DNA of 64,000 nt from NCBI GenBank assembly GCA_014621425.1, contig JAANBB010000045.1, positions 1 to 64,000 on the forward strand. The letters are read 5' to 3'. Below the pieces are notes generated by a model. The model was not told the origin of the DNA. It ran no database searches and worked only from the letters and a program-made list of their open reading frames with translations. Below, piece after piece: positions 19,635 to 57,700 of the stretch (its first letter is position 1; each line of letters opens with the position of its first letter). Made by a program: the position numbers and the translations under genes. This DNA comes from Cylindrodendrum hubeiense (Eukaryota; Ascomycota; Sordariomycetes; Hypocreales; Nectriaceae).

Positions 19635-21539
19635 TCAAATAGGATTTTCTATCATACAGACCACCTTTCGCTCAAAGTCTTCCAGAAAACACCGCCTCCG
19701 AAGTTCCTCATCATCCTCAACACCAGAGTTTGACCCGTCATTGTGTGGAAAGCAGTGGTCCTGGCCAAAATTCCCTTCCAGGCAACAGGTAACAACATCT
19801 GCATAGACTTTTCCCATGCGACCTCTGAGCTCCGGGACATATTTAGTCTTTAACCTCTCAGAAACAACTCCAAGGTCGTCCGTCCGACAATCTTTAAAGA
19901 TCCGCTGTATAGGGCACCATAGACCAATTTCTAGGAGAACTACTCCTAGGCTGTAGATATCGAATTCCCTTCGGTACCTCGGTGATGGATGGATGCATTC
20001 CATTGCGCTCCTAGTTGAATCAGGCACTGCCATATTTCTGGAAGGGTGCCAGTAGAGACGCTCATTGGGGGACGGGAAGTCGTTGAGATAGATGGAAGGA
20101 AGCTTCTCACTTGGTTCAAGGTCGTTATCTCGCCGCGTGAGGCTGAACCCGCCCAGGAAAGGGCTCTCAACCGTATGAGAATCCCTGTCGCCCTCGAACA
20201 GCAGTATGTTACTGCTCGAAATACTTTTGTGGAGCCAATTCACAGAAAGCATCTGGTACACCGTTCCAACAAGGCTGCGCGCGGCACGGAGACGATCTTC
20301 CAGGTCTCTGCGGATATGCCGCGGCTGGTCTTGACTGAGTCGATGCTCGAGGGAGGTCGGCGATGCTGCACTGTTCTCCCCGGGGTAGCGGAAGACGATT
20401 CCATAGCGGCAACGCTTTTCATCGTGAAAATAACCCAAACATGGCAAGACGCCGGTATGAGCCAGAGCAGAGAGCTGCTGGAGCTGCATTGCGAGCATGT
20501 GGACACGAGCGTCGACGCCAGAGAGGGTTTCTCGTGTTTCCTCTGACGAGTAGTGGCGCCATTCAATTATCACTGGCGAGGTCTCCCGGAAACCAAATTC
20601 TTGAGTGCGAAAGCCTTCGGCCCCGTGTTTGTCGAATTGAAACTCAGATGCTCGGAGATACAGGGATGCCTGCGATGCGGCAACCCTCGACGCGTACCTG
20701 CTGGCAGTGGAGAGAGCTGCTAGAGCCCTTTGACTGTTTTCTTCCGCCGGCTTGGGAGAATCTGTCTCCAAAGCGTCTGTTTCATGTCTGCTCTCAAGCA
20801 ATCGTGCCATGAGGCTGTACTGTCGACCAACTTCGCCAGCGTCAACATCGCTTGTGGTGTTATTATTTAAGCCGATATCCGCCATGCTAGCGGCCAGCTG
20901 TCGAGTGGTCACCAGCACTCGGCCGATTCGTCGTTCGAATCGAGCCATGCGATAAAAGGGCAGCAAATCGGCCAACTCAGCGTTGTACTTTCGAAGTGTA
21001 TCAACAAGTCGAGACAGCTCTTTTTCATCTCCTGAAGCCCATCGAATCCTGGCCCAGAGGCCAAGCTTCAACTGTTCCGCCTCTGTCTCTCTCAAAACTG
21101 CACCGTTGAGAGCGGTGCTCGGGTTCAAGAAGCGGTCCAATCGCTTTCTCCAGGAACCACTGCTTGACGCCTGGTTTGGAAAGTATCTCTCTAGTGTTGG
21201 TCTTGCTGCTTGTAGGGACATGTTCATGTTCGCCACGGACCTCTGGATGTGAGAGAGAATGTGTCCCCGGTGAAAGTCGTGTGGAAGAAGCGTCATCATA
21301 TCTGAATCCCGCATATCTTGTCTTTCGTCATCCTGGACGATCGCCTCGGTGAAGCCGGTTTCCTGGACCCAACAAGAGAACCGTATGCGTTGCCATTGTA
21401 AATGAACCAACAGATTCTCCAGCTCCATATCAGCACCCCTTGCGGTCGAAATGATGTCGAGCAGGTCTATGCATGTCTTAAGCGCCCCAATAACACCTAT
21501 GATGCTTGCCGCAGCCCCTATGGCTTCCAGGCCGGACAT
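19635..21539 (-). CDS. HeLo domain fused to a pseudokinase
   Basis: Single exon, 634 residues. Residues about 1-225 resemble the HeLo (prion-inhibition and propagation) helical bundle: a hydrophobic N terminus (ASIIGVIGALKTCIDLLDII) followed by LENLLVHLQWQRIRFSCW, the same layout as the HET-S-type membrane-active domain. Residues about 320-630 form a protein kinase fold (FDIYSLGVVLLEIGLW is the alpha-F region). The catalytic residues are replaced: the VAIK position reads IIEW (324-327), HRD reads HKS (437-439) and DFG reads GGF (463-465). It is therefore a pseudokinase. In MLKL of animals a comparable four-helix membrane-killer domain is controlled by a pseudokinase. By analogy this protein may be a cell-death executioner triggered through its kinase-like part. 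It starts 354 bases from the divergent kinase/ankyrin gene. Death activity is inference; the two-domain architecture and the dead motifs are seen directly. Confidence 0.85.
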   Translation of the reverse strand: MSGLEAIGAAASIIGVIGALKTCIDLLDIISTARGADMELENLLVHLQWQRIRFSCWVQETGFTEAIVQDDERQDMRDSDMMTLLPHDFHRGHILSHIQRSVANMNMSLQAARPTLERYFPNQASSSGSWRKRLDRFLNPSTALNGAVLRETEAEQLKLGLWARIRWASGDEKELSRLVDTLRKYNAELADLLPFYRMARFERRIGRVLVTTRQLAASMADIGLNNNTTSDVDAGEVGRQYSLMARLLESRHETDALETDSPKPAEENSQRALAALSTASRYASRVAASQASLYLRASEFQFDKHGAEGFRTQEFGFRETSPVIIEWRHYSSEETRETLSGVDARVHMLAMQLQQLSALAHTGVLPCLGYFHDEKRCRYGIVFRYPGENSAASPTSLEHRLSQDQPRHIRRDLEDRLRAARSLVGTVYQMLSVNWLHKSISSSNILLFEGDRDSHTVESPFLGGFSLTRRDNDLEPSEKLPSIYLNDFPSPNERLYWHPSRNMAVPDSTRSAMECIHPSPRYRREFDIYSLGVVLLEIGLWCPIQRIFKDCRTDDLGVVSERLKTKYVPELRGRMGKVYADVVTCCLEGNFGQDHCFPHNDGSNSGVEDDEELRRRCFLEDFERKVVCMIENPI

Positions 21540-21893
21540 ATCGGTCGCGTCACCCTAGAGAGGGTAGCTTGGTTCTTTTTGCAGGCCGCCAGAGCGATGA
21601 AACAATATGGGAGTGAGTAGGCAAGAGCGCGCATCTAAGATTCATAGAGGAAAATGTAATTCAATTGTTCTTGTGGCTTTGAAATCCCTGCGTACTTAAG
21701 TAGGTATGTGAATATTACTTTATTAGGAGCAAGGCCGGCGCTTACATGTGGCATGCTGCATGTATACGTGCTGCGCGACTGGCCAGGGTTGTATCAATCT
21801 GAGACAAATTTTCCGTCAAGGGCGTTTCAGACCTATATATACATCCTAGACAAAGGGGCAGCATTGTAGAGCCTTACTTACTGGTAGGCACTC
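21540..21893. promoter_or_regulatory. Short divergent promoter between the HeLo and kinase genes
   Basis: 354 bases separate the two start codons. A TATA-like tatatata at 21834-21841 faces the kinase gene. No clear TATA box faces the HeLo gene. The short spacer makes coordinated expression plausible. Confidence 0.5.
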
Positions 21894-24800
21894 ATGAATA
21901 AATGCCGCGAGTGTCTTGCTGATCTCGATAATTCATTTTCGTCATGCACTGGTCCAATACGCTCACTTTCGGCTACTGATAACCTGACAGCTCGCGTCAG
22001 ATTCAAAGACTCCGGCCCCCAGTTCCTTCACGTCCACCACCGCATCTCTTACTTTTCCAGCAGGGTCATGTCCTTCGATCTCACGTTAAACGCTTCAATT
22101 TCCTTCGGGCGACGACAATCAACCAGGTTGGCCCCAGACTCGGGTCGGTCCGATGTGTATGAGCAAGAGAAATATGACTTCCTCGGTCTGATCACCGCAG
22201 TTGCCGACCTTTACTCTCAAGAGGATGTCCTAGAGATGCAATGTCGACGAGAGACGGGAAAGCCGCTCTCTAACGGAGCCGTCTCGGAGGTGTCCACTGT
22301 CTATGCCGCCTTCACACGCCCCAGCACCATCATTTCGCACCAGACCAAGACTCGGAAAACTGTAGTCGTCATCAAGGCTGTTTCTTCCAGACGGCCAACC
22401 CAGCGATGAAGCGTCCCTTAAGAGCTTCATATCGGATTCGGATCCTCAGTCATAGAAGTCTCCGCCAACATCCCAATATCGTCAAGATTCTCGGAGTCCA
22501 CTGGGACTACCTTCACACCGTGCGTACTATCCTATTAACGCTCTAATGGTTTGGCCCTATGTACTAATTGTTCTTGGATCATGCTAGGGATACCCAGAGC
22601 CCTTGATTCTTCTTGAGAAAGCAAACATGGATTTGAGAATGTTTCAAGCCAAGTAAGTTCCCAGGTGGTGCAAAGGAAGTCATTTTGATCAGGAGTAGTA
22701 CAGCTCACCAGCATTATATCCAGGTACAGCTCATTGCCTTTCGCAACAAAGAAAGCCATTGCTCTCAATATCGCTTGTGGCTTATCGGCCCTTCATGAAT
22801 GTGGCGTCATCCATGGTGACATGAAGCCGGCGAACGTCCTCATTTTCTTTAAGCCAGAGCTGCACGCGAAGATAGCGGACTTTAGCCACGCATTTCTCGA
22901 CACTGGGGAGCAACGCCAACTAGTTGGCGGGACCCGTATCTATACGGCCCCGGAATGGAAATCTTCAACCTCCACTAACCAGCTTCGCAAAACCGACATT
23001 TATTCACTCGGCCTAGTCCTCAGTGGCCTAATTATGGGCTTCAGTCTGATTGATTGCGTTAAAAAGAACGAGCCTCAACCATATTTAGATCTCTCCCTCG
23101 CAGACAGGATCCAGAAGCTCAAAGATGATGATCTCATGGCGACTTACCTCTACGAAATGATATGTCTTGCAGATCAAGAAAACCCGGATTTGCACCTTGA
23201 CGGTTTCGCAGTGATCAGATCCATGCTCGACTCTACTCTCCAGCTGGACCCGAGTAAGCGTGACCTCAACCAAATTATCCGGCTGCTCTCTAGCAGGTAG
23301 CCTCTACCCACACCCTCTCAAGAAAATTGCTAATATATGGACAGCGAGCCTCAGGCCACTCCGAGGTTCGAAACACTCCAGAATTCACCAATCTCAAATG
23401 GCGTGGGTAGTCAATCCCTATGTTCCCGCAGAGCTAACAATTCCCCTCAGTTGTCGATTCCGTACGCAGCACTTCAACACCTGAGCCCCGTGGTGATGGA
23501 TCAAGTTGTGAGAGCCTTGCGAATGGTGGCAGATTCTCCAGTTGACAGTAGAAGAGCGGCAGCTTGTATGGAACTGGCAATATGTCACATGTGTGACCTC
23601 GGCAAATCCAATGCACACGAGTTCACACAAAGATCCAACAAGACCGCACTCGACTACCTACTGAAGGCCGCCGCACTCGGTGCCTCGTTTGCCCAAGCGA
23701 TAGCGGAACGAGTCTCTCAAGTCTTGCAAGAAGATATTCCCGACCACTATCCGACGAAGGATTGGCTTTACAATGCTGCAACAGCCGGCTCGATAACAGC
23801 CCTTGAGTCTCTCAAGCATGTCGATTCTTCTCGACACACCGAAGCTCTAGAAGTCTTCCGATCCACCCTCTGCGGCAACCCCGAGAATTGTTTCGAAAAT
23901 GTCCTCATCAATATGACTAGTGATGCGGCGACCATTGTTAATGGCAGGAAAGACACGGTTATTCACTGGCTGGCGTCCACCGGGCAAACAGAAAGACTCA
24001 GATCCTTCGCCCCACAGAGTCATATACTCAATAGTCAGAACCATCAGGGAGACACCCCCTTGCTATGTGCTACCAGAGCGGGACATTACGCCGCTATGGA
24101 GCAGCTTCTCAGCTGTGGAGCGGACGCAAGTGTAACCAATGCTGCAGGCGAGAATGCGCTGCATTTCCTCGGCAGTCTTGACGAACAAGACGTTTATTCA
24201 GCGGCCCATATGTTGCTCGCAGCCGGGGCTGTCCCGGACGCAGAGGCGACATTGTGCACAGGGAATACGAGCTTGCAGACACGACCTACAGGGGCCGGGT
24301 GTCCCAAGCTTCGCGCCGTGCTCTCAGACCAGTCACACGTCTTGCGAGCCCTACTGGAGTTATGTAAGCTGATGGAGCGCTCCGTCACGCTGTCGGAACA
24401 AAGAACCATGTTGGCATGGGCGGTGCGACTGCACCACGCCGAAATCTTGCAAGTACTACACGAATGCTTCGCCTCCTCAGGGCTGTTTTCCGACCTGCAA
24501 CAAATTCGAGTCTGGAGTGACGGCATGCGGCAGTCGTTACCTGAGGTGTGCGTTAGAGGCTGCGTGTCTGGAACCGAAACGGCAGGCTTCGACATGCCCG
24601 AAGGATTCATGCGGCTCGTAAACCACGGGAGCAACGGCTTGCACTGTCTTGAACGCACCATATCATTCATGGAGATGCTCTCGCCCGGGATTATGGAGAT
24701 GGACTGTGGTGGTGCCAGAAATGCCCTCTTCTTTGCCATCAGGGAAGGTAGGAGAGATGCCGCACACCTACTCGCAAGATTTGAAACATTTGAAGGCGAA

Positions 24801-27352
24801 TCACTGTTTGTAGACTCGCCGAAGAAGCTGGAGGAACTAGGACGACGTATCAGCAAAATCCACCCAGGCGAGGGATCTCGAACGCCTCCATATTTCCACA
24901 CAACCCCTACTAAGGGTATGTACTGCAGAGAAGATGAGCAGGCTTACCAGTGTATTTCTAAACCGTCGTCTAAGAAACAGAGGCGACGCAGGATGATGGA
25001 CCGCTATCGTGGTATGCGCAGTCCGATGCGCAGTCCGGTTGGATTCCATCGCACGGATTCCGGCTCTAGCGACGAGTCCCCCGAAGATAGTGATTCTGGA
25101 GATGACGACAGCATACGCCATTCGACGCCAATACGATTGCGGAACGAGGAGGATGAGCGGAAGAAGCTCAGGCCGCCTTTGCCTGCAACAACTCATCAAC
25201 CAACAGACCATTACAGTATAAGCGGCCACGTGGATGCTATTATGCTCGCCGCGCTGCACGGGCAACGGGCCATATTTTATGACCTCATTTCCGGGCCTGG
25301 GGGCCATACCATGCAGACGAATCCACTCTTCCCCTGCTACGTTTATCAAGATCGTTTCGCCGTCCATAGTTTAAAAGGCTGCGATGATTTCCGTGGATAC
25401 TTCCCACGGGGTGCGTGGAGGTACCCGGTTGCCGATGTCAGAAGAAAGGGTAAAGGTGTTACCGAGTTCGATGGTACATTATGCTACCCTCTGGCCTACA
25501 TGACGGCTATAGCGAGATCCGCCCATCGCGATATTTGCCTAGCGTAAGGCACCATTTCCAAGCTCAATGAACGCTTTTGCTAACGCTGAATGCCTTCGAT
25601 CTCAGTCATATCCTTCTCATGGTCATGAAGCAGGGCAATATATCAGAGCCAGCAGGCTGGACGGCGAAGAGTTGGTTCGAGGACGTTTGTCTCTCCCTCG
25701 ACTCATGCTCTGGCCAATCGACTCCGCTTTTCCATGCAGCCGCTCTCAATTGGGATGAGCTGTCTGACCTTCTCTTGGAACACGGCGCATTCCCACAGAG
25801 TACGTGTTTTTGCGAGGCCCAGGCCAGTACCGTGCTCGCACGACTCATCGCTGCCACAAATAATGTCGCAGGACAAGTACAGAATCTTCTTGCTATCGCC
25901 GCGAGCCGAAGCACTACTGAGTCGATAATCACTCTCCAGGATGTGAGTGCCATAATTGGCCAGGGCTCACATGCAGGGAAGAACATTGCGTGGACATACG
26001 GCGCTCTATGTTGGGAGTCGTTTTCCATCTACGACGAGGATCGCAACATGAGGCTTTGGCAGGCCATCGCGGCTGCCAATTCATCGCAGAGACTGAAGCT
26101 TCAGGAAAACAAGGGGGGGTCTTCCGCTCTACTGATCGAGTCTGTTTGCCGCCGGGACTTTTATGCGGTAAATACTTTGCTGGAAATTGGGGTGGACCCG
26201 GAAATGGGCCGGCACGGCTGGTCCATCTTTCCTCCGCGCGTCACCGCTCTAGATATCGTCACCTGGACGGCGTATGTCAGCTTGGATGATTGTTACGACA
26301 GTGGATGCGCCCTCAAGGAGAGAGACGCAAAGCTCTCGGCGTTGCTTCGATCCCATGGAGGCGTTCGAGGAGTCGAATACACGGTCGAATATCAGCTGCT
26401 GATGAACTTTGTGCAGACACTGATAGTTCCGACCGTTGGGACTGCTCTTCTAGCTTACGCACTGTACTGGGTTACTCCCTTCATTTCCGTCCACTGGAAT
26501 CAGTCTTGGCGCATAACAAAGCAATGCGCCGCTGAAGAAGACTCGGGTGGTATCGGTGAGACTGTCGAATTTGTCTTAGGCAAGGCTGCAGCCGTTCTGT
26601 GGGGGTTCTTTGTCGCCAAGTGCGTCATGTTTCTTGCCATTGGGGAACTGAAAACTTCTTCTCACGAGGATAAATATTTTCTTGGAGGAGTATTAGTGGC
26701 CGTCATTGGTTTGATGGGTATAGGAGCCTTTTTCACCACGGTACCGTGCCTCTCTGGGACAGCACCACATTCGAAGGATGCATTCTATTTTGGCTTGCTC
26801 TTTGATGGAACATTGTGTTTATTCCTCGTTGTGGCAGTCATATCTTTCATCCTTTTCTTCCAAATCCTATCTGGCTTCTGGCTCCTCCGCCCTCTCAAAT
26901 CAATAGGAGTAAACCTCCAGGGTGGTTGCCCTCCGAGCGTGGTGTGGAGAGCGACGTATTCGTCACTTTGGAGTCCGGCGATCGGAATAATAAGTGCGCT
27001 CAGAATTTTTTTCGCAGGGGTTAAATCCTGGAGGATTGGAACAATCAACCTTGGCTGGAGAAGGGAAACACCGCTCCAGCTCAACAATGACCTGTAAAAT
27101 CTTGTTCAACCAAGTCACCCAATATGGTTCGACGAGATCGCAGAAGATCACGGGCAAGCTTTGAATCGGGCAGATCGACCATGGCGACGAAACTACCCGC
27201 TATGGCAACCTGGACTGCTCGTAAGAAAGGTGCTGAGACATGTTCGCCTTAGTTCAATTTTCGGCAGTTATGACTGGACGGCAAGGAACGTGGAATTTAT
27301 GAACGATGATTACGGGGAGAGCGATTTGCTCTTGGGGGGGTTCGAAGAATAG
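21894..27352 (+). CDS. Kinase/Sel1/ankyrin/four-helix membrane protein with apparent frame lesions
   Basis: Exons end or start at 22519/22588, 22652/22724, 23296/23345 and 25543/25606, all with good splice sites; about 1650 residues reach the first stop. Order: N-terminal region; kinase domain with VVVIK lysine, HGDMKPANVL catalytic loop, ADFS metal site, TAPEW and DIYSLGLVL; Sel1-like helices; ankyrin repeats around 23950-24230; Arg/Ser-rich linker; further ankyrin-like units; four hydrophobic helices at about 26390-26890. Catalytic Lys, Asp and Asn are present, so the kinase looks active. Start may be ATG 21894 or 22068. Anomalies: between the lysine and the helix reading HRSLRQHPNIVKILG, the conserved segment moves through three frames (two single-base shifts near 22390 and 22437). 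A TAA at 27095 is followed by 84 more open codons with family-like sequence to 27352. Either the allele is damaged or the sequence has errors. Divergent partner of the HeLo-pseudokinase. Confidence 0.75.
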
Positions 27353-28274: not shown

Positions 28275-29798
28275 TCAAGTGCAGGCCCACTTGTCAAGTC
28301 TCTCTGGTAACCAGCCGCTGGTGTGCATCAGAGATGTTTTCCTTTGAGACATTGCTGGTGCGTAGCCTTGGCCCATTATCATCTTATCGTCCATCTTGCA
28401 CAAGTCCTCCACAAATGTCCATTGGATGCAGTCGGCCCATCCTTTACAGGCTGCTTCGCAAGCCTCGACAGACTCCCAGGCGTTGTTCCAGAGGTCCATG
28501 TTGTACTCTCCTTCTGGGTGTGGAGGCGCGTCCTTGTTGGCAGAGGCGACCGCGTAGAGGTTAGCCATATTGTCCCACCACTGAAGAGGCTCCTTGATGC
28601 TTGGGAGAATCTTCTGTGAAAAGAAGTCACGGTGAAGAAGGGGTTGCTTCAGACGTACGTTAGTTCCATTGACATAAATCTCCAGCTGGACAAGGGTAGA
28701 GCATACCTGAAAGTTCCACGACTTCTCTAACTCATAGTACTCGGAGACATCCCGATTGTGCACCTTGTGCCATGACAACAAGGGGTGACACCAGTTGTGT
28801 TGGCTAAAGGCAAAATCCCAGTGGACGACGGGATTGAATCCCCAAGTAAACTTCTCGTCGCCACCGTTCTCTCCAAACTTGACGCCGTAGTTCTCCAGAG
28901 CGTGGGCGAGAACTTGGTCGCCACAGCAGTGGTCGGCCGTGTACTGATAGTACTCTTCGGTAATGTTGGAGTTTTTACCAAAAGACGTCTCCCAGGCGCC
29001 GCGAGACAGGGCGAAGCCGGCGCCACCATGTGCAAAGACGACGTCGGACTTTGCCGCATAGCTGCCGAGATATTGCGGTTTGCGCCAGTCAAAGGTGGAC
29101 AGGTACGCAAGCACATTGGGCAAGAACAGGTACGAGTCGTCCTCCATGTAGATGTACCACTTCGCAGCTGGCCAATTCTCACCGGCATGCTGCATTAAGG
29201 GCACGAATTTGTACTTGTCAATGATCCAGCCACCTGTCGGACCCCATTCGTCGCCATTCACTCCAGCGGCTTCGGCATAAAAGTTGTTGGCCATGTACTC
29301 GGGCTGCTGGCGGTAGACGTCAAAATCAGGCTTCGCCTTGGCCGACTCCGTCATGTTTGCAAGGACGTCAATGATTTTGAAGCGGCCTATCGTCTCCGCA
29401 TAGTCGGAGTAGATGATGACGTTGTCCGGGCTGATGCGTTCGCTCGCGAGGGTCGTGGCCAAGTGCACAAGCAGTCGCTTCCACATGGTTGTACCGCCCG
29501 TCTTCACTATGAGAAGCACATCGTCCTTGGTAAGTGGCCCGCCAAGGGGAACATCTTTGAACGACTGTGTTGGTGCTGGAGGTTCCTCTGCGACGGCGCT
29601 CCAGGTATCGCTGGCCGTCTCGTTCTGTGCTGGCGTACCCACATGTTGCTCGGGAGATTGACTTGGATCTTCCACAACGTCTGGAAAAACTCGCCCGTAG
29701 CCTCCTACCGGTGGTTCAATGAGATAGTAGAAGAGTCCAATACATGCTGCAATGATGATGGCCGGAACCAGGCGGTTGTTTCGATACGTGACAATCAT
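28275..29798 (-). CDS. Type II membrane glycosyltransferase, DUF604/GT31-like, with PAN-like C terminus
   Basis: Start ATG 29798; an upstream in-frame GTG at 29807 is not needed. A short cytosolic tail and signal anchor (VPAIIIAACIGLFYYLIE) place it in the Golgi. The lumenal domain shows KFVPLMQH, KWYIYMEDDSYLFLPN (the DxD-type metal and nucleotide-sugar site), HGGAGFALSRGA and a Cys-Cys-Gly-Asp segment, the layout of fungal fringe-like family 31 enzymes. The C terminus has a Cys-rich stretch (CEAACKGWADCIQW) resembling an apple/PAN module. A 60-base intron at 28706-28647 (gtatgc donor, ctaac branch, ctgaag acceptor) is in frame and free of stops; splicing joins WNFQ to QPLLHRDFF and gives about 487 residues. 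Acceptor and donor sugars are unknown. A GT2 enzyme gene is transcribed in the opposite direction 1.5 kb away. Confidence 0.85.
   Translation of the reverse strand: MIVTYRNNRLVPAIIIAACIGLFYYLIEPPVGGYGRVFPDVVEDPSQSPEQHVGTPAQNETASDTWSAVAEEPPAPTQSFKDVPLGGPLTKDDVLLIVKTGGTTMWKRLLVHLATTLASERISPDNVIIYSDYAETIGRFKIIDVLANMTESAKAKPDFDVYRQQPEYMANNFYAEAAGVNGDEWGPTGGWIIDKYKFVPLMQHAGENWPAAKWYIYMEDDSYLFLPNVLAYLSTFDWRKPQYLGSYAAKSDVVFAHGGAGFALSRGAWETSFGKNSNITEEYYQYTADHCCGDQVLAHALENYGVKFGENGGDEKFTWGFNPVVHWDFAFSQHNWCHPLLSWHKVHNRDVSEYYELEKSWNFQVCSTLVQLEIYVNGTNVRLKQPLLHRDFFSQKILPSIKEPLQWWDNMANLYAVASANKDAPPHPEGEYNMDLWNNAWESVEACEAACKGWADCIQWTFVEDLCKMDDKMIMGQGYAPAMSQRKTSLMHTSGWLPERLDKWACT
28647..28706 (-). other. Stop-free in-frame intron of 60 bases
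   Basis: It has good 5' and 3' splice signals and a branch point, with a length divisible by three and no stop. If retained it would insert 20 residues into the lumenal domain of the glycosyltransferase. Confidence 0.7.
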
Positions 29799-31298
29799 GA
29801 TTCGCACTTGAATGGCTCATCAAGCAGCTGGATCCGGTTTGCGGAGGAGAAGAAGCAGAAAGGAGCGTGGCCGACGGAGTCAAGTATCATGGAACGGCCT
29901 AGTAGGGCTGATGCATGGATCACAGGGGAAACTCGACCGGAGATGGTTCTCGGCGATTTCCCAAAAAGGTTGACAACGGTTTAGATGCATTCCGGGGTCA
30001 AGTGTATTAATTATGGCCCATGGTCCACAGGAGTCTTGGCAGGGGGGCATGGATCGTCTGGTGGCGCGGTGCCGACGGTGAAATTGTGAGATTGGCTTTC
30101 GTGCTGCATCTACAGATTAGTTTTCGGCAGAGTCGGTCCGGCCCGGATCATCAAAACTCTGCTGTAGACGCCTGCAATGGCGAGCCCGGATCATCATGGC
30201 TCTCCTGACGACACCTGTAATGGCGACATGGCAAGGGGATTTTACAATGAAAAAGGAGCAGTCTAACAGCATTTGAAACACGCCCAGCAGCCACTTTTAA
30301 CGAAATTCACGTCCATCGTACTTTGGCCACTGACTGATTCGGGAATGGGTGGGTATACTGGCCTGTGCTGGAAAATCGGCCGAGTGTAACGTCATCCATC
30401 TCCGGAACACAAGGGTCTCCTATTGCCGTCCCATCCGCCTAAGGGTCTAAGGCATTTGTCAGGAGTGCATTTCTTTTGCGTGCATTGAAAAGATGCACTC
30501 GCACCTAGCGTGGGGCGAAGCCTCTGAGCCGGTTCTTTAACGCGTGCAGATCATCAACAGTTTGGGAAGACCAATTAACGTCTCCGGCCCAATGAAAAGG
30601 TCTTCTCAGAACCAGCTCCATTTCTTCAAATGACTCTTATGGTGTCGACTCACGCAGGTCCTGTTAGGCAGATTTGCTGCAGGGCACGAGAGCAAACCAG
30701 GTACCGTCTTTCTCCACCTATAGCTGCGTGGAGCTATGGTGAAGGGGTGGTATTCTCCTTCTTGGCCATGTGACTCTCATTTCTCCCTACACGCGCATGA
30801 TATACCACCCGGCGGCTCATTCCTAATATTGCAACCGCCGAAGCAGCCGGCGGCCGCTCTCCTTAACGTAGGGCTAAAGAGAAATTTTAACACCTGGTAC
30901 ATGCATACTGCCTGGCGACACCCGGCCGATATCCTGGTAAACAGGGAAGCATCTTGATTGACTCAAGACGCGATCCCCAATGAGGAACAACTAATAGGCA
31001 GCACCCCAGTCTCTCCCCAGTTTCAGCAACCAGCACTTTGGCATGCTGTTACATTTCGAAGCTATGAGGCCATTTAAATACCCAATATTTCCTCCTGACG
31101 CTAATGATGCCGCCTCAGCCGCCCCCGTGCAAATATTTCTAGTGTGAAAGGAGGCTATTTTTGTCTCTGGATCTAATCTTTATCCTTTTACTTCCCCCTA
31201 TTCCCAGCTCGATGCGCGTATACGTACTGCCTCCTCCGTAGAAGCAACACATCGCGGGTGGTGACTACTGTTCAGTGGCAGGCACCAAAGTCTCAATC
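29799..31298. other. Long divergent promoter region of the two glycosyltransferase genes
   Basis: 1.5 kb without a supported gene between two divergent starts. It contains GC-rich and CT-rich blocks, suggesting promoter function for the GT2 gene. No known repeat was found. Confidence 0.5.
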
Positions 31299-38018: not shown

Positions 38019-39132
38019 CTACAGCTCTAAGCCTGAGAACCAATCGGGGATCCCTACTACCCAAGTCCCCAACATTTCCAACGCCCCGGGCGGGATCCCG
38101 ACGAACATTCCCAAGAGGCCCAGCGCCGTCGGGATGAATGGGATAATCTTGCGGAGCCCGCTAGATTTGCGCTTAGCCCCTGTCTTGATCTCTTCTTCCA
38201 CCTCCCCTGCCACGTCGGCGCGTAGACTGACCTGTTGCTTCTCCGTCTCGCGGAGCTGCTCGCGCCCGCGTTCGAGATCCAGCTGAACCTGCCGTCGCAT
38301 GGCCCTGTCTTTCTCCTGCAGCTCTTGGCGCATGGACTCGAGTGACTCGAGTTCCTGCAGGTACTGCTTGCGCAGCTCGCCAAGGTCGTTGTTGACATAG
38401 GACCCCGCATCAGTCTCGTTCAGCTTCTTTCCTTCGTTTATCATCTCGTGTTGGAGACGAAGCACGACAGGCTCCTTGATGACGAGCTGGCTGATGAGGG
38501 CGACTGCCGATGTGCGGTCGCCGTGGAAGCGGCTAACGACCGAGCCGCGACCGACCATGTAGGCCCAGAAGTCGTCCCTGAGTTGGCGCTCTCGGGATGC
38601 TCCCAGAGCCTCATCAACCTCGTGCCAGCGGGTCGTGGTCAACATGACGTTGGAAAGTGCATCTTCGCCGCATATTCTCTTGAAGATCTCAAATGTCTTG
38701 ACCGCGGCACCACAGTATCGAATGTCGGTGATTCGATGGACGTAAATAATGCCCTTGAGCTCAAATCCCAGACCATACTGCGCTGCGAGTATTCTTGCGA
38801 TTTCATTCAAGATCTCAGGATCCGATCGCTTTGTGTCGTCAAATCCTGGGGTGTCGATCAGAAGCACCTTGGTATTTCCGATATCCACCGGGATCATTTG
38901 ACATTCATGTGTGCCTTGTATATCGTTAGTGCCACGGATTTTGGGATATTTGGTTAATGTTTCTTGGATTATACTTACAAGAGTCCAAGTCTGCGCCCTC
39001 TTCGACGACATTTCTTCCTGCCAGCTTGTTGATGAGATAGCTCTTTCCAGAGCCTGTGACCCCCATCACCACCACCATGCTCATGCCATTGGCACGAGGG
39101 GGGCCCGAATTCTGATTCTTCGTAGTGTCCAT
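38019..39132 (-). CDS. AIG1/GIMAP-like GTPase with coiled coil and hydrophobic tail
   Basis: Two exons (39132-38979, 38914-38019) encode 349 residues. ATG 39132 is chosen; one codon group upstream (39144) is also possible. The G1 P-loop is GVTGSGKS, the switch region follows LDSCTHE (a threonine positioned as G2), G3 is DTPGF and the G4 position reads TTRW in place of the usual TKxD, so guanine specificity is not certain. Residues about 215-290 form a charged coiled coil (QELESLESMRQELQEK). The C terminus contains hydrophobic segments (IIPFIPTALGLLGMFVGI), suggesting membrane association like GIMAPs. Related P-loop GTPases are numerous in filamentous fungi, mostly unstudied. The gene is divergent from an Hsp70-like gene. 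Confidence 0.83.
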
Positions 39133-50497: not shown

Positions 50498-51883
50498 CTA
50501 GGCGAGGCCTTTTGCTCTCCATTTGTCTTCGAATCGCCCCAAGCTGCCCAAGTAGCGCGGAACGCCGGCGAGATCGCAGTCCAGCCAGTACGTGCGCACA
50601 GTCGCGCAGTGCTGCCGTGTTGTTGAATTCATGCCTGCAAGGTATACGGGACTAGCCAGGTGCATATGGAATGGCGAGGATCGCGGGGTAGATGCGACCA
50701 CTTCGCATATCCTGTTTACTGCGGATAGGATGGCCAGCCGTCTTGATGTCGTCGTCTCGTCGCTCACCCGTTCAAGCACCGCGAGCGCCGCTGCACAGCG
50801 ATTTGCGTTCGCACATCGTTTCCAGGCTGTGTTATCTGAGTCCAACTGCAGAAGTTGGTCCATGGCCCGAAAACAGCTACCTAAAGGGTCGGAAGCGGCT
50901 TCGCCTTTTGCAACATCGACGAATAGTTGAAAGGTATCAGCTGGGCATCCCACGGCGTCGAAAAAGGTGTCGTTTAGTAACTCGCGATGCCAGTCGTCAA
51001 ATATTAAATCCGTAGTCCCTCTTACCACGGCTCCCATCGTATCAAACCACACAAGCCGTGCCACTATCTCTTTTAATCCTATGACGCTCTCCGAGAGTTG
51101 GTCCAGTTCAGGCCGACTTTGACAATGGCAGTCCAGCAATGACCGCGCGCCGTAAAGATGGCACTGCCACTCTCCAAATGCGCTGTCGGAGACTTCGAAT
51201 ACCGCAAACGCGGCAATGCCCAGGATTGCGAACGGGTTCGCAGTCTGCAGGGCCTCGTTGAGCTCCATCAGGGCTGCCAGGCGGTGCCGCGCCACGTCCA
51301 CGGACTCGGATGTCTCGCCCTCAGTTAGCGCATCCGTGGGGCAGCTCTCGATGCGTGCCTGCATGAAGTCGTAGAGGCGAGAGACGAGTCGGATGGCTTC
51401 CACGGAGAGATACCGGCCGGAGTCAGAGGTGCGCCCTTCGGCGGATTTGATGTGTTGGCAGAACGCTGCGAGGCGCAGGATAAAGCTGTTCTTCTCGGTG
51501 TGCAGCGAGTCATTGCGCCTGTCGTCAATCTGGATGCACGAGGCCCTCTCCACTCGGGTCGGTATTTCGACGACCAGCGTCGCATCCACCTCTGTCGGTA
51601 CCGGCATCTTGGACAACTGGGGTGGGCTCCTCTGCTTTGGCTTTGCGGATGTCGACGTCTCCCCCGTCCAGACGACCCTCTGCGGATACCCTCCGCACGC
51701 TAAACCGGCCTGGACGCAGGGAAGACATCGCGGGCGGTTGAGGTCGCACTTGACGGCTCTGGTCTTGCAGGTGCGACAGTCCCTGTCTCGGCGCATCCCC
51801 CGCGGCTTTCCACGGCGCTGGGTTCTGTCGTCGGTGGTGGACATGGCGGATGCAGCGGTCGGATGTTGGCGATGGTCACTCAA
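50498..51883 (-). CDS. Zn2Cys6 transcriptional regulator
   Basis: Intronless, 461 residues; ATG 51883 is used and a second ATG 13 codons later is also possible. Residues about 36-64 form a binuclear zinc cluster (CRTCKTRAVKC, then CLPCVQAGLAC) with the Cys spacing 2-6-5-2-6 expected of Gal4-type proteins, preceded by a basic arm. The remainder is helical and fits the fungal-specific regulatory region: SVEAIRLVSRLYDFMQARI, LAALMELNEALQTANPFAILGIAAFAVFE and LVWFDTMGAVVRGTTDL. It is nuclear and probably binds CGG-type inverted or direct repeats. It sits between the amidase and the transporter, diverging from the transporter with 541 bases between their starts, so it is the likely pathway-specific regulator of both. 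Confidence 0.93.
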   Translation of the reverse strand: MSDHRQHPTAASAMSTTDDRTQRRGKPRGMRRDRDCRTCKTRAVKCDLNRPRCLPCVQAGLACGGYPQRVVWTGETSTSAKPKQRSPPQLSKMPVPTEVDATLVVEIPTRVERASCIQIDDRRNDSLHTEKNSFILRLAAFCQHIKSAEGRTSDSGRYLSVEAIRLVSRLYDFMQARIESCPTDALTEGETSESVDVARHRLAALMELNEALQTANPFAILGIAAFAVFEVSDSAFGEWQCHLYGARSLLDCHCQSRPELDQLSESVIGLKEIVARLVWFDTMGAVVRGTTDLIFDDWHRELLNDTFFDAVGCPADTFQLFVDVAKGEAASDPLGSCFRAMDQLLQLDSDNTAWKRCANANRCAAALAVLERVSDETTTSRRLAILSAVNRICEVVASTPRSSPFHMHLASPVYLAGMNSTTRQHCATVRTYWLDCDLAGVPRYLGSLGRFEDKWRAKGLA

Positions 51884-52424
51884 GAGTCAGGACTCAGGTC
51901 GCCCGTTAGATGACTCGTTAGGTCGGTTACTCAATAGGGAAGGGAAACAGGGACAACCAGGGACCACGCCGACGACCCAAGGGCGTATGGGGCAATTATA
52001 GACACGACGCTCCGGGGTGCAGACGCGCTGCTGCACGTCGGTCGTCTCCACTGATAAGTTCACCCGGCTTCCCCGCAGATAGGATCTAGTTCTGGTCTGT
52101 GTCGCCTGATGAAGTGAAAATGCGGTATGGAGTATGCCTATCGCCTATCGCTACGACCTATGCCAAGCTAGTATCTCGGCGCTAGCCACACGTCCAGAGG
52201 CCGCGCTATCGCCTGCTGGCGTCGACAACTTCCTCTCGACGTCCCCCGGTTGCGGCAGCGTCTCGCACTTGATAAGCACGCTTCACACGGCATTGATACA
52301 AATACCACCGGTATTTCGCCCTCGAATATGCCGATCCATTGATCACCGCATCTATTCAATCGCCCCCAAACACCTACGCCCATCACATTGTCACGGCACA
52401 CTGCTGCAGTGTTGAGTCATCGCC
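51884..52424. promoter_or_regulatory. Divergent promoter of regulator and transporter
   Basis: 541 bases between the start codons of the Zn2Cys6 regulator and the MFS permease. Several CGG/CCG triplets are present, but no single paired site stands out enough to call. Confidence 0.45.
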
Positions 52425-54040
52425 ATGGCATCCAGGATCCGCGAATACCTCCATGTCGACTACAAGCCCGGCGAGCGCGTGCTGGTTCAGAAGATCGACT
52501 TCTTTATTCTGACCTTCTGCTGTCTCAGCTACTTTGTCAATTACGTACGTCCAATTCGCTGCCAATGCTCCTCCAGGGCCGTCCTAACCATGCGCAGCTC
52601 GATCGCAGCAACCTTGCCAACGCCTATGTCTCTGGCATGAAGGATGAGCTGGGTTTTGTCGGTAACCAGCTCACTGAAATCAACACATGCTTCACCGTCG
52701 GGTATGCAGATCTAGCCCGTCCCCGATGCTGCACCGTACGGCATTGAGTGCTTGCAGTGCTAACTATTCAATCAGCTACGTTATAGGCCAGATCCCCTCC
52801 AACATCTCCCTCCACTATGTCAAGCCGCGCATCTGGTTCCCAATGATGATGATCCTTTGGGGTGCACTCACCATGGTCACCGCCTCAGTCCAGAGCCCCA
52901 AGTCAATCATGGTCATTCGCTTCTTCCAGGGCATCTGCGAGGCTTCGACCTTTGTTGGCACCCACTACATCCTCGGCGCGTGGTATACGGAACGTGAATT
53001 AGGCAAGAGAAGTGGCATCTTCACCGCATCCGGACTTGCAGGCACTTTCATCGGTGGCTTCATCCAGACGGGCATCAACAAAAGCTTGAACGGCCGCCAC
53101 GGTCTCAGCGGATGGCGCTGGCTATTCATCATCGATGGACTCCTCACCGTCCCTGTTGCTCTCTACGGTTTCTTCTTCTTCCCCGACACTCCGAACACTA
53201 CCACAGCCTTCTACTTGAGCGAAGAAGAGCGAAAGCTGGCCGTCTCCCGCGTACCAGTAGTCGAAGAGCGAACCCCAATTACCCTCCGGTTTGCGAAGAA
53301 GGTCCTGACTTCTTGGTACTGGTGGGGATTCGTCGTCCTCTGGATTATTGCTGGCGAAACCGAGTCTTTCAGCACAAACGCCCTTCTCGCCCTCTTCATG
53401 CAGAGCCATCCGACCAACACATACACCGTCACGCAGAAGAACAACTACCCCACTGGTGTCCCTGCAGTCGGCATCGTGTCGACACTCTTCTGGGCCACTC
53501 TTACTGATTTCCTCGGCGGAAAGCGCTATCTTGTCGGATACTGGATCGGCCTCACTGGAATCGCCACATCAATCATGGTTCTCGTGGCATCCCAGAACCC
53601 GACAAACCCCACATCCACCACAATCACCTTTGCCGCCTACTATTGGGCTGGATCCGTCTATGCCTGCCAGGCAACATTCTTCGCGTGGTGCAACGACGCA
53701 ATGCGCTACGAGGACGGTCTCTTCCGCGGCGTGGTGTTGGCCGGTATGAACTTGGGCAGCAACTCCGTCAATGCTTGGTGGAGCATCATTTTCTACGGTG
53801 CCTCCATGGCGCCTTGGTTCAAGGTAATTTAACCGCCCCCACCGCTTTTCTCGAAATATTTCTAACATTTTCATCTAGCGCGGAATGTGGGCTATGATTG
53901 CCAGCTCCATCGCCTTGATTGTGTGGAGTGCGGGTCTGACCTACCTGGCCCAGAAGAACATCAAGAAGCGTGTCATCGAGGCAGAGGCGGAGACTAATGA
54001 AATAGTCCAGAACAAGGTGCATGACAAGGAGGAGATTTAA
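52425..54040 (+). CDS. MFS permease, allantoate/anion:cation symporter (Dal5) type
   Basis: Four exons (52425-52544, 52598-52701, 52776-53823, 53879-54040) encode 477 residues. Twelve hydrophobic helices can be followed. Family marks include the LDRSNLANA segment after helix 1, YVIGQIPSNISLHYVKPRIWFP, MVIRFFQGICEASTFVGTHYILGAWYTERELGKRSG and GWRWLFIIDGLLTVPVALYGFFFFPDTP, the Dal5/Tna1/Seo1 anion:cation symporter pattern. It should import an organic anion such as allantoate, nicotinate, a vitamin or a small peptide across the plasma membrane with protons. Its position beside the regulator and close to an amidase favours a nitrogen-containing substrate. Confidence 0.93.
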
Positions 54041-54778
54041 ACTGGGGGATTAATTATTTTTGCACATTCTGGGGGTGTTATGCACCCAATGACGGAAACT
54101 CTGGCCTCTCCAGGCATTTCCAGGCAATGGAACATCAAGCACAGCCATTGTTAGTTATCAGAGAGTTAATTTTAGCCAAATGCGATTCTTATTCTGAGTC
54201 AGTTGGTTTCGGGGAATAAATCCTATGTTGGTTTTCACGGCCTCATGGCCATCTATAAAAATGCTTCGGTGCTAGCTAAAACTGGTCCTTGTCATAAACT
54301 GGCCTAATGACATCACAGTAGTCTCCGAAAATCATTTCCCCAGTAGACCACTTCCCAGAAATATTTATCCCCACGCTATATCAAAAGCACTTAGGCTGAT
54401 TGGTGATCTAATCACACGGAGTAGCCTGTGACATTGTTGTAAGGCTCGACACTGGCGTCAGGTCTACTTTTTAACAGCCTTGGTATAGGGTAAGGCGCGT
54501 AAAACAGCATACAAGCAGGATACCTTTATTAAATTTTGGAGTAATAAAGTGTTAGGAAAAGTTTCAAGTTTTAGAAATGCTTGCATTTATTATAAACAGT
54601 CTTGACTAATAAAATAAGATATCTTCTTTCTATTTTGCATCCTTGGTAGTTCTAACATACGACCTTTGAGACTCGCTCATTATTTTCACCCGACCCTTGG
54701 CCGCGGGTATAGACACTTGTAAACCTGGCAGCAAATCGTTGCTCTAATGACAAATAAAATACAAATCTAGTGGAAAGC
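54041..54778. other. Intergenic between convergent genes
   Basis: AT-rich 3' sequence between the permease and the ABC transporter. Nothing else is recognised. Confidence 0.5.
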
Positions 54779-57700
54779 TCACTGCAGCATCTGCTGCATT
54801 GCGTTGAGCCTGTAACTCTCTCTCCGCTCCATCAATTCAGCATGTCGTCCGCTGTCGACAATCTGGCCGCCCTCGACAACGAAGATGACGTCGGCCTTCT
54901 GCACAGTGTGCAGTCGGTGGGTAATGGCCAGGACCGTTGTGCCTCGGGACGCCTTTTCGAGACCCTTCTGTAGCGCGGCCTCACTGGCAGCATCCAGGGC
55001 ACTCGTGCTCTCGTCGAGGAGCAACAGGCGCGGGCGACGGACAAGAGCTCGCGCAATGGCGAGACGCTGTCGCTGACCGCCCGACAGACGCGAGGCAGAA
55101 GGACCGCATTCAGTGTCGTAGCCTTCGGGAAGTTCTGCAATTACGTCGTGGATGTTCGCGAGGCGGCAGGCCTCTTCGATCTCGGCATCGGTGGCTTCGT
55201 GGCCTGGCAGAGCGCCCAAGCCGACGTTGAATCGTACACTGCCGTCGAATAGAGCGGGTTCCTGAGGTACCAGGGCAATCGTGTCGCGAAATGAAACAGC
55301 GGCCTTTCCAATATCCCGATCGTCGATCAGGACAGCACCCTCGGTGGGTTCGTACAGTCGCTGCACAATGTTCATGATGGTAGACTTGCCGGCTCCGGAA
55401 GGACCAACAAGACCACAGAACTGGTTAGGCGGAAGTGTGAACGAGACATTGTCGAGGATGGTGACATCCGGGCGACTGGGGTAAGCAAAAGAAACATTCT
55501 TGAAGGACACCTTTGAGCCGCCGCGGCGCTGGTTATCCTTTGGGCTTCCCGACTTTGACTCTACAGCGGCCTCGACATCGTCACCTGCCTTGGAAGGATC
55601 TGAACCAGGCTTGCCGGTATGGGTGCTAGATCCCATATCAACAACTGTCATAACTCGAGACAAGGCGAGACGAGCGCGCGAGAATTCCGGAGCGAGAGAG
55701 AACATGCTGCTCCAGAGCTGGGCACTTGTCAACATGGCCACGAGAATAATGAGGAAGTCTTTCTGCGTGTATTCTCCCTTCATGACAAGCTGCGAACCCC
55801 ACCAGTAGGCGAGAGCGTTGACGAAAGTGCCAGTAGAGTAGGATATAGCGAGCCAGATGTTGGTCGTGGCAGAAGCACGCACTACCTGCTTGCGCGGAGG
55901 CTTCAGAAGACGCTCAAAGGATTCCATGTACTCCTTCTCGAGCGACAGAGTAGCAACGGTCTTGATGGACTGGATGGCCTCGGTAGCAAGCGAAGTGGCC
56001 GTTGAGAAGGCTGAGCGGTGACGCTCCTCGTAGCGTGCCAACATGCGCAGCTGCATGAAGCCAGAGCCAAGAAGCAGAGGGACCGTCACCAGACACACGA
56101 GGGCAATCTTCCAAGCAAAGATGTGCGAGATGATGATGGCAATGACGACGTTGATGCAGATGGCGAAGACGGTACCGAATGTGGATCCGCTAAAGGCACC
56201 GACAGACATGCTGTCCTTGGTGATGATGGAGAGCAGCGTGGTCGGGGTGCGGCCTTCGGACTCGTGCCAGTGGATTCCCTGCTCCAGGAGAGAGCGAAAC
56301 GAGAGGACGCGCAGATTGTAGAGGAGTCGCTCGGCGATGATGCCGAATCCCCACCAGGCGAGGAAGTTGGCGATGAGCTCGATGCCCGCAAGCATGAAGT
56401 AGAGACCGGCAAAGAAACGGCCCATAGACCGAATCTTATCAACAGTGCTCTCGCAAGGGTTGAGAGCGCCAACAGTGAAACCAAAGATCATACCAGCGCC
56501 GGAAAAGGTAGCTCCAACGAAGATGGCAGCGATGATGGCAATAATACACCAGCCGAGAGAAGGTCGGACCAACCAGGCAAGACCCTTCATGACGGAGCTG
56601 AATGGCTTGATGACATCGAGTTCTTGGTCCTTGGGCTCCTCCTTAGCCTCCTCTTTGTCCGAAGAAGACGGAGTCTCGCTATCAATGGCTTGCTTGGTCT
56701 CAGAGATTTCAGCCTTTTCGCTCGGATACACTTCCGTCTTGAGAGTCGACGCGTCGAACGAGTCACCCGAAACAGACCCTGCGTGGGCGCTGCTTGCAGT
56801 GCCCACTGATTGCAGCTTAGCCATGCGGTGGAATTCGCCATCATCCTTAGCCATGAGTTCAGCGTAGGTTCCCTGCTCGACAACCCGGCCAGCCTGCATG
56901 ACAACAATGTTGTCGGCGTTGCGGATAGTTGAGAGACGATGTGCGATAGAGATGATGGTTCGCTGCTCGGCGGCGGCTCGCTCTACGGCTAGTTGAATTC
57001 TCTTCTCACTAGCGGAGTCAAGGGACGCGGTCGCCTCATCGAGAACAAGGATTTCAGGGTCACGGATCAGGGCGCGGGCAAGTGCAATTCGCTGTCGCTG
57101 GCCACCGCTCACGAGGGAGCCACTTGGGCCAGCAGATGTACCGTAGCCAGACTCGAGGCGCTCGATGAAGCTGGCAGCATCAGCCTGCTCTGCAGCGTGG
57201 CGGATCAGGTTGGCGAGTTCAAGAAATTCAGGTCCCAGAGATGCTGCCGAAGAGAGCGCATCCTTACCGCTGAGGGCAAGCTTGGCGAGTTCAGGGCCGC
57301 TAAGCAATGGCTTCAAGTGCTGATGGGCATGCTTGGGCGAGTTGACGAGACCAAGGGCGATGTTCTCCAAGATAGAGCGGTCAAGAAGAGAGGGCTCCTG
57401 CTGGACAAAACTGATGAAACTTCGAGCAGACCTAACGTTGAGCTCCCGCATATCGTGGCCTTCGAGTTCGACGGTACCCTCTGTGGGATCGTGGAGTCGA
57501 GCAATCAGAGCTGCAATGGTGGACTTGCCGCTGCCGGAAAGACCGACGATGGCCGTGTACTTTCCAGCGGGGAATTCCAGGTCCACGTTCTGCAGAACAG
57601 GCTGGCCAGGACGCGATGCGTACTCGAACGAGACGTTGCGGAAGTTGAGTGCCTTTGCCGTGCTCGGCGGGAGGACGGTGCCGGCGTCAGAAGTACCATC

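What the first reader, a model, noticed from the sequence alone, without database searches (positions are those of the whole stretch)
19635..27352. Divergent HeLo-pseudokinase and kinase-ankyrin-membrane gene pair resembling an MLKL/RIP-kinase module
Seen: two genes back to back with 354 bases between starts. One encodes a HeLo-like helical domain plus a kinase fold lacking all catalytic residues; the other encodes a kinase with catalytic residues plus Sel1/ankyrin repeats and four membrane helices. Known: HeLo domains (HET-S type) are membrane-active cell-death domains; MLKL combines a four-helix killer bundle with a pseudokinase and is switched by RIP kinases, one of which (RIPK4) carries ankyrin repeats. 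In fungi, death executioners and their sensors often sit as adjacent gene pairs. Inference: the pair could be a fungal regulated-death or allorecognition unit in which the membrane kinase phosphorylates the pseudokinase.
Basis: partly seen in the sequence, partly recalled or inferred. Interest (0 to 1): 0.85.

Follow-up and report, generated by a model that had tools for sequence, protein, structure and literature searches.

The report
Fungal kinase and HeLo-pseudokinase gene pair
Two back-to-back fungal genes, one coding for a dead kinase joined to a membrane-attacking type of domain and one for a live membrane kinase, turn out to be one of many such pairs, sometimes fused into one protein, which suggests that fungi may have their own version of the kinase switch that triggers necroptotic cell death in animals.

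Summary
Gene A (19635-21539, -) encodes a HeLo domain (PF14479, E 1e-19) plus a kinase fold whose three catalytic residues are lost in all 23 aligned sequences (the window's and 22 relatives). Gene B (ortholog-supported start 22068, +) encodes a kinase, ankyrin repeats and membrane helices; its kinase N-lobe frame is interrupted in this assembly, but full-length relatives keep the catalytic residues. The fungus is Cylindrodendrum hubeiense.

Both refutation tests were passed. In four other species the two orthologs are listed with the same contig. Of 18 loci in this genome homologous to A, 10 have a kinase gene head-to-head, 1 tail-to-tail, 2 are fused to a kinase in one frame, 2 have a same-strand kinase within 4 kb, 3 have none found. 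On one capped kinase list: 11 of 18, against 0 of 28 other HeLo or DUF7580 loci. Kinase and pseudokinase trees mirror each other (Mantel r 0.54, p 6e-4). Kinase-pseudokinase fusions occur in many Pezizomycotina.

Best reading: a kinase-to-HeLo-pseudokinase relay working like RIPK3-MLKL. The partnership is well supported; phosphorylation and cell death are inferred. The HeLo-pseudokinase architecture is noted in print; I found no mention of the kinase pairing.

The parts
19635..21539 (-). Gene A (G7Z17_g3580): HeLo-pseudokinase, 634 aa, single open frame
20928..21518 (-). HeLo domain PF14479 (residues 8-204), preceded by the start of a hydrophobic N-terminal helix (residues 3-31)
19638..20672 (-). 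Pseudokinase domain (residues 290-634); Trp327 at the VAIK Lys position, Ser439 at the HRD Asp position, Gly464 at the DFG Asp position
20088..20153 (-). Pseudo-activation loop, residues 463-484, holding Ser477 and Ser482, which are Ser or Thr in 23 of 23 aligned sequences
21540..22067 (.). 528-bp divergent intergenic region (354 bp if the upstream ATG at 21894 is used)
22068..22519 (+). Gene B exon 1: kinase N-lobe; reading frame interrupted between about 22375 and 22450 in this assembly
22588..22652 (+). Gene B exon 2 (kinase hinge region)
22724..23296 (+). Gene B exon 3: kinase C-lobe with HGD and DFS motifs
23345..25543 (+). Gene B exon 4: ankyrin-repeat region
25606..27094 (+). Gene B exon 5: C-terminal part with five hydrophobic segments, three strong and two borderline
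27095..27352 (+). Probable last exon of B; splice site not resolved; ends in an acidic tail similar to that of Chaetomium P0028

Best explanation
Genes A and B form a two-component signalling module. B is a membrane-anchored kinase whose ankyrin repeats sense or dock something. A is a HeLo (four-helix-bundle, MLKL/HET-S type) effector held in check by a pseudokinase. When B is engaged it phosphorylates or binds A's pseudokinase, most likely at conserved Ser/Thr residues in the pseudo-activation loop. [quoted passage not shown] Shown by computation: domain make-up, loss or retention of catalytic residues, adjacency in this genome and (by contig listing) in others, fusions, co-diversification. 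Inferred: direction of signalling, phosphorylation, membrane attack, biological role. The window's own B copy may be damaged or misassembled in the kinase N-lobe.
For: HeLo in A at E 1e-19 and in 23 of 23 aligned sequences; a profile of A has HET-s (2wvn, E 7e-4, over profile positions 108-199) as its best solved-structure match. Pseudokinase: 0 of 23 keep the Lys, HRD Asp or DFG Asp. Kinase fold. B relatives (14 chosen of 115 hits): HxD Asp, DF(S/G) Asp and alpha-C Glu in 14 of 14, Lys aligned in 13 of 14. Within the genome 13 of 18 loci are adjacent or fused; like for like, 11 of 18 against 0 of 28 control entries. Fusions of a catalytic kinase with the pseudokinase in this genome (C357, C523b) and in other Pezizomycotina; HxD and DFG in 42 of 42 aligned fusions (42 chosen of 58 hits). 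Mirrored trees: Mantel r 0.54, p 6e-4, 13 pairs. Two Ser/Thr columns kept in 23 of 23 in the pseudo-activation loop.
Against: No experiment. No kinase was found near 3 of 18 loci, and 2 have one only in tandem 3-4 kb away. HeLo passes E 0.001 by Pfam in only 6 of the 10 head-to-head loci (not C1, C152, C634, C46), and in the fusions only weakly (4 of 42 at E up to 0.05; hhalign probability 14.6) or not at all (C523b). The window's B frame is interrupted. No MLKL or RIPK3 chain appeared in the sequence search of solved structures. Partner kinases belong to more than one subgroup, and relatives of the C152 kinase lie at places where the search with the C152 pseudokinase found nothing.
Confidence: 0.55

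Rival explanations
1. Pseudokinase as regulator of the kinase. A controls B rather than the reverse: the pseudokinase allosterically switches the neighbouring kinase, as JH2 does in JAKs, and the HeLo bundle is only an oligomerisation or membrane-tethering part. The output is kinase signalling, not pore formation.
Against: HeLo is found in 23 of 23 aligned A sequences, each with a hydrophobic N-terminal stretch, and HeLo domains studied so far are membrane-active (PMC12881547, passages).
Confidence: 0.2
2. Brake rather than trigger. B restrains A, as in a toxin-antidote or allorecognition pair; phosphorylation or binding keeps the HeLo effector inactive, and mismatch or loss of B unleashes it.
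For: Divergent neighbouring genes also suit linked killer/regulator pairs (general knowledge); adjacency, fusion and co-diversification do not tell the sign of control.
Against: The window carries an intact A beside an interrupted B frame; if that interruption is real, a strict antidote role is unlikely.
Confidence: 0.12
3. Linkage by history only. The genes are neighbours because an ancestral pair was duplicated as a block, without a present functional link.
For: The mirrored trees suggest that pairs duplicated as units.
Against: The paralogs of A are only 26-40% identical to it, so linkage outlived deep divergence; shared contigs in other species, fusions and 0 of 28 control entries argue against passive linkage.
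Confidence: 0.07

Closest known systems
MLKL with RIPK3 (animal necroptosis) and plant MLKLs
   Same: N-terminal helical killer-type bundle plus a catalytically dead kinase domain in one protein; a separate live kinase as partner; pseudo-activation loop with conserved Ser/Thr (MLKL side from PMC12881547 section 18, and general knowledge).
   Different: The bundle is of HeLo type; no sequence match to MLKL among solved structures at E up to 1; the partner has ankyrin repeats and hydrophobic segments and is encoded next door or fused.
NWD2/HET-S and other fungal NLR-effector pairs
   Same: HeLo effector encoded next to its sensor (PMC10197012 and PMC9815663, passages).
   Different: The neighbour is a kinase, not an NLR; the effector carries a pseudokinase. 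No shared motif was seen in a plain BLASTP of the Fusarium A and B proteins; no amyloid-motif search was made.
Fungal gasdermin / protease gene pairs
   Same: Executioner clustered with an enzyme that often carries ANK, TPR or WD40 repeats; more than 80% of fungal gasdermin genes are reported protease-linked (PMC12881547 section 20).
   Different: The enzyme is a kinase and the putative executioner a HeLo-pseudokinase.
het-Va / het-Vb of Podospora anserina
   Different: Methyltransferase and TUDOR reader instead of kinase and pseudokinase.
HELL proteins with kinase/pseudokinase domains noted in PMC12881547, Fig. 6 legend
   Same: Same kind of single-protein architecture as gene A.
   Different: The legend and sections 18 and 20 do not mention a partner kinase gene or a fusion with a live kinase.

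Membership tests
HeLo domain (PF14479) | Profile match above the curated cut-off | tested here: met
   71.6 bits against 23.2, E 1e-19; 23 of 23 aligned sequences at E up to 0.001
HeLo domain (PF14479) | Homology to the solved HET-s HeLo domain | tested here: met
   Profile A1 against PDB sequences: 2wvn E 7e-4, 2wvo E 1e-3, the best two of ten hits, over about 90 positions
HeLo domain (PF14479) | N-terminal helix that enters membranes | not testable with these tools
   Hydrophobic N-terminal stretch in 23 of 23 (19-residue mean 1.6-1.9); membrane action needs experiment
Pseudokinase | Protein-kinase fold | tested here: met
Pseudokinase | Loss of VAIK Lys, HRD Asp and DFG Asp | tested here: met
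   0 of 23 keep any of the three at the positions assigned by eye
DUF7580 (PF24476) | Profile match above cut-off | tested here: inconclusive
   Window A 20.7 bits, below 27; 17 of 23 aligned sequences at E up to 0.001
MLKL | Four-helix bundle plus pseudokinase | tested here: inconclusive
   Architecture analogous; MLKL was not among sequence hits nor among the 50 structural rows shown, where only the kinase part was tested
MLKL | Phosphorylated and activated by a RIP-type kinase | not testable with these tools
   Needs biochemistry
RIP kinase | RIPK-type kinase with RHIM, death domain or RIPK4-type ankyrin tail | not tested
   B has kinase, ankyrin repeats and hydrophobic segments; no RIPK-specific profile was run
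Fungal cell-death sensor/executioner gene pair | Effector gene adjacent to a repeat-bearing sensor gene, kept across species | tested here: met
Fungal cell-death sensor/executioner gene pair | Causes regulated cell death | not testable with these tools
   Needs experiment

The most novel reading that the evidence does not exclude
Filamentous ascomycetes run a widespread family of kinase-to-HeLo-pseudokinase switches, encoded as divergent pairs or as single fused proteins: a fungal counterpart of the RIPK3-MLKL relay in which a linked live kinase, rather than an amyloid-signalling NLR, arms the HeLo executioner. Pairs diversified together into about a dozen specificities in one genome.
Probability: 0.42. 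Interest if true: 0.9.

Novelty: new variant of a known kind. Interest (0 to 1): 0.74.

Why it matters
Fungal HeLo executioners are known to be triggered by NLRs through amyloid templating; in mammals the related bundle is triggered by a kinase acting on a pseudokinase. PMC12881547 section 18 (read) calls for clarifying how far necroptosis and fungal necroptotic-like death are conserved. A genome-wide set of kinase / HeLo-pseudokinase pairs and fusions makes this testable with defined partners, gives a ready set of parallel pairs for studying specificity, and would add kinase-gated HeLo units as a class beside NLR-HeLo and protease-gasdermin pairs.

Tried and rejected
Considered and rejected: (1) a pseudokinase that is merely a degenerate copy of its neighbour kinase. 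Profile comparison gives pseudokinase of A to pseudokinase of the fusions probability 100, E 1e-61, against 96, E 3e-9 for pseudokinase of A to B kinase, so the pseudokinases form their own family. (2) A shared motif between A and B: a BLASTP of the Fusarium proteins P0001 and P0026 gave nothing significant; no dedicated amyloid-motif search was made. (3) A larger set of pairs around the C152-type kinases: the C152 pseudokinase hits 15 of the 18 loci already known plus one new fragment, C409 (C523b, C788b and C224 are not in its list), while its kinase has several relatives at places where that pseudokinase search found nothing.

Led nowhere or limited: the single-sequence PDB search of A gave only chance-level hits, HET-s among them at E 0.32. 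The structural look covered only the kinase part of A; the HeLo part was not folded or searched alone, and the fusion model was not searched against structures. PMC4790977 (the 2016 HELLP paper) is not held. The kinase list is capped (124 of 259 candidates scored), so expectations are too low; doubling the number of kinases still gives under 1 expected of 18 within 3 kb. The 28 control entries (C379 appears in both lists) were tested only against that list, whereas three pairs (C500, C401, C46) come from profile scans of fetched loci; the fair comparison is 11 of 18 against 0 of 28. Flanks fetched were about 7 kb upstream but only 1.5-2.5 kb downstream, and intervening genes were not ruled out. 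In one search C1 rests on only 78 aligned pseudokinase columns, and the window's kinase is represented by its Fusarium ortholog P0026 (A by P0001). Rows left out: A1 uses 22 of the 24 hits (P0002, the same gene, and P0009, 523 aa, dropped); A2 uses 42 of 58 hits (mostly shorter, partial or weak hits dropped, some of which may lack the pseudokinase); A3 uses 14 of 115 hits.

Print searches for the pairing: (open-access PubMed Central only; most subscription papers are missing; most listed papers were seen only as title and start of abstract).
Full report
WHAT IS THERE. The window is contig C390 of a 47.5-Mb, 798-contig fungal genome. G7Z17_g3580 of Cylindrodendrum hubeiense is 100% identical to gene A over the 75% of A that it covers, and G7Z17_g3581 corresponds to gene B (P0002, P0025; both listed on a 169,512-bp contig). 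Gene A is one intact frame of 634 aa, 19635-21539 (-). Gene B lies head-to-head on the other strand. Orthologs P0026 and P0028 start at a methionine that corresponds to ATG 22068, so 528 bases lie between the starts, not 354. B has short introns; exons 3-5 join in one frame of 1417 residues without a stop. Its first exon changes frame twice between about 22375 and 22450, and the deposited model starts after that stretch. Full-length relatives exist (P0026 1647 aa, P0028 1733 aa). Whether the window copy is damaged or misassembled is open.

GENE B. Kinase PF00069 9.4e-20 and ankyrin PF12796 1.6e-13. A simple hydropathy scan shows five segments in the window's last long exon (three strong, two borderline) and four near the C terminus of P0026, P0028, P0032 and P0033 (P0034 ends within the first; the scan also flags two stretches inside the P0026 kinase, so it is crude). 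In 14 relatives (chosen from 115 hits, five of them close) the HxD Asp, the DF(S/G) Asp and the alpha-C Glu are in 14 of 14 and the lysine is aligned in 13 of 14. Sel1 does not appear for the window's B; it is weak in paralogs C500 and C1.

OTHER SPECIES. The first two are tight by consecutive tags or contig size. Gene order and orientation were not seen. For other species only one partner surfaced (for example Fusarium proliferatum A; Aspergillus arachidicola B); with 90% clustering and length filters this says little about absence.

THE SAME GENOME. A search with A gives 18 loci, the window included. I fetched the other 17 with flanks and scanned frames with Pfam and with a kinase profile. 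Result for the 18: kinase gene head-to-head at C390 (window), C500, C788, C79, C786, C401, C1, C152, C634, C46 (10); tail-to-tail at C523a (1); in the same open frame at C357 and C523b (2); same strand 3-4 kb downstream at C14 and C712 (2, positions only); none found at C131, C788b, C224 (3). C357 also has a second kinase tail-to-tail. HeLo passes E 0.001 in 6 of the 10 head-to-head loci (C390, C500, C788, C79, C786, C401) and at C523a, but not at C1, C152, C634 or C46. Ankyrin repeats were seen with the kinase in 8 of the 11 split pairs (C390, C500, C788, C786, C401, C1, C523a, C46), not in the frames scanned at C79, C152 and C634. Control on one and the same capped kinase list: kinase within 8 kb at 11 of 18 A-like loci, 0 of 9 other HeLo loci, 0 of 19 other DUF7580 loci (C379 is in both lists); Poisson P between 6e-10 and 2.5e-12 depending on distance. 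The list is incomplete, so the expectation is too low; doubling it does not change the conclusion.

CATALYTIC SPLIT. All 15 partner kinases tabulated (13 pairs of this genome, with C390 represented by P0026, plus Chaetomium and Staphylotrichum) keep the HxD and DFG-type aspartates; the lysine could not be read in several because exons were incomplete. Where the segments align, the pseudokinases of the loci lack both, except that unpaired C788b keeps an HGD-like motif (C224 not readable).

FUSIONS. The C357 protein (G7Z17_g3473, P0140) has 57 further hits; I aligned 42 of the 58, the query included. All 42 match Pkinase and 33 of 42 DUF7580 at E up to 0.05. In the first kinase HxD and DFG are invariant; in the second domain the HRD aspartate is kept in 1 of 42 and the DFG aspartate in 0 of 42. 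Named sources include Ilyonectria, Podospora, Beauveria, Xylaria, Nemania, Rasamsonia and lichen fungi. The model (mean pLDDT 82.4; not compared with known structures) shows a first kinase at about 158-412, a helical bundle at 423-604 and a second kinase-like domain at 616-916. The bundle is HeLo-like only weakly: 4 of 42 at E up to 0.05, hhalign probability 14.6. Thus the kinase-pseudokinase link is firm, the HeLo identity of the fused bundle is not.

CO-DIVERSIFICATION. Kinase and pseudokinase trees of 13 pairs of this genome correlate (Mantel r 0.54, p 6e-4; 0.62, p 4e-4 for 11 without fusions; 0.55, p 0.011 for 8 after also dropping C152, C634, C46; 0.61, p 2e-4 for 15 with Chaetomium and Staphylotrichum), with matching groups {C46, C152, C634}, {C523a, C786, C79}, {C357, C523b}. 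This suggests that pairs duplicated and diverged as units.

HOW IT PROBABLY WORKS. The simplest account of adjacency, fusion and co-diversification is that each live kinase acts with its own pseudokinase. With a HeLo bundle in front of the pseudokinase and a membrane-bound, repeat-bearing kinase as partner, a RIPK3-MLKL-like relay is the most likely mechanism: sensor kinase engaged, pseudokinase modified or bound, HeLo released, membrane permeabilised. Steps from modification onward are inference. The reverse control (pseudokinase regulating kinase) and a brake model remain possible.

WHAT IS KNOWN. PMC12881547 (passages; [quoted passage not shown] it does not, in what I read, mention a kinase partner gene or kinase fusion. 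PMC10197012, PMC9815663, PMC5485727 and PMC9262711 were seen as passages: NLR/HeLo, gasdermin/protease and methyltransferase/HeLo pairs are described. In eight searches of open-access papers no listed title or abstract start names the kinase/HeLo-pseudokinase pair; the listed papers were not read in full and subscription papers are mostly missing, so priority is not proven. RIPK3-MLKL details beyond these passages are from general knowledge.

VERDICT. Observation real with corrections; interpretation strengthened as to partnership, untested as to killing. New variant of a known kind: a fungal sensor/executioner pair with a kinase gate.

Noticed in passing
window 22375-22450: Gene B's reading frame changes twice inside the kinase N-lobe while exons 2-5 are open; damaged gene or assembly error. 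Full-length relatives exist in Fusarium and Chaetomium.
   Followed up: partly
window 27251-27352: B ends in an acidic GESDLLLG-type tail after the hydrophobic segments; a similar tail ends the Chaetomium ortholog P0028.
   Followed up: no
L031:1471-4068 and L033:3239-5797: Single open frames fusing a live kinase to the pseudokinase; the L031 protein has relatives in many Pezizomycotina.
   Followed up: yes
L037, L038, L039: Three loci form a separate pseudokinase subgroup, with FVHK in the catalytic loop and no Pfam HeLo match, each head-to-head with a kinase of its own subgroup.
   Followed up: partly
window 38022-39011: Frame with a weak AIG1 GTPase match (E 2.8e-4, below cut-off), a family tied to immunity in plants and animals by general knowledge.
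   Followed up: no
window 28278-29807: Fringe-like glycosyltransferase frame with a weak PAN domain match next to the pair.
   Followed up: no
window 50501-58612: ABC transporter (54782-58612, two matches each to the membrane and ATPase profiles), MFS transporter (52687-53829) and Zn2Cys6 regulator (50501-51883) close together, resembling a transport or secondary-metabolite neighbourhood.
   Followed up: no
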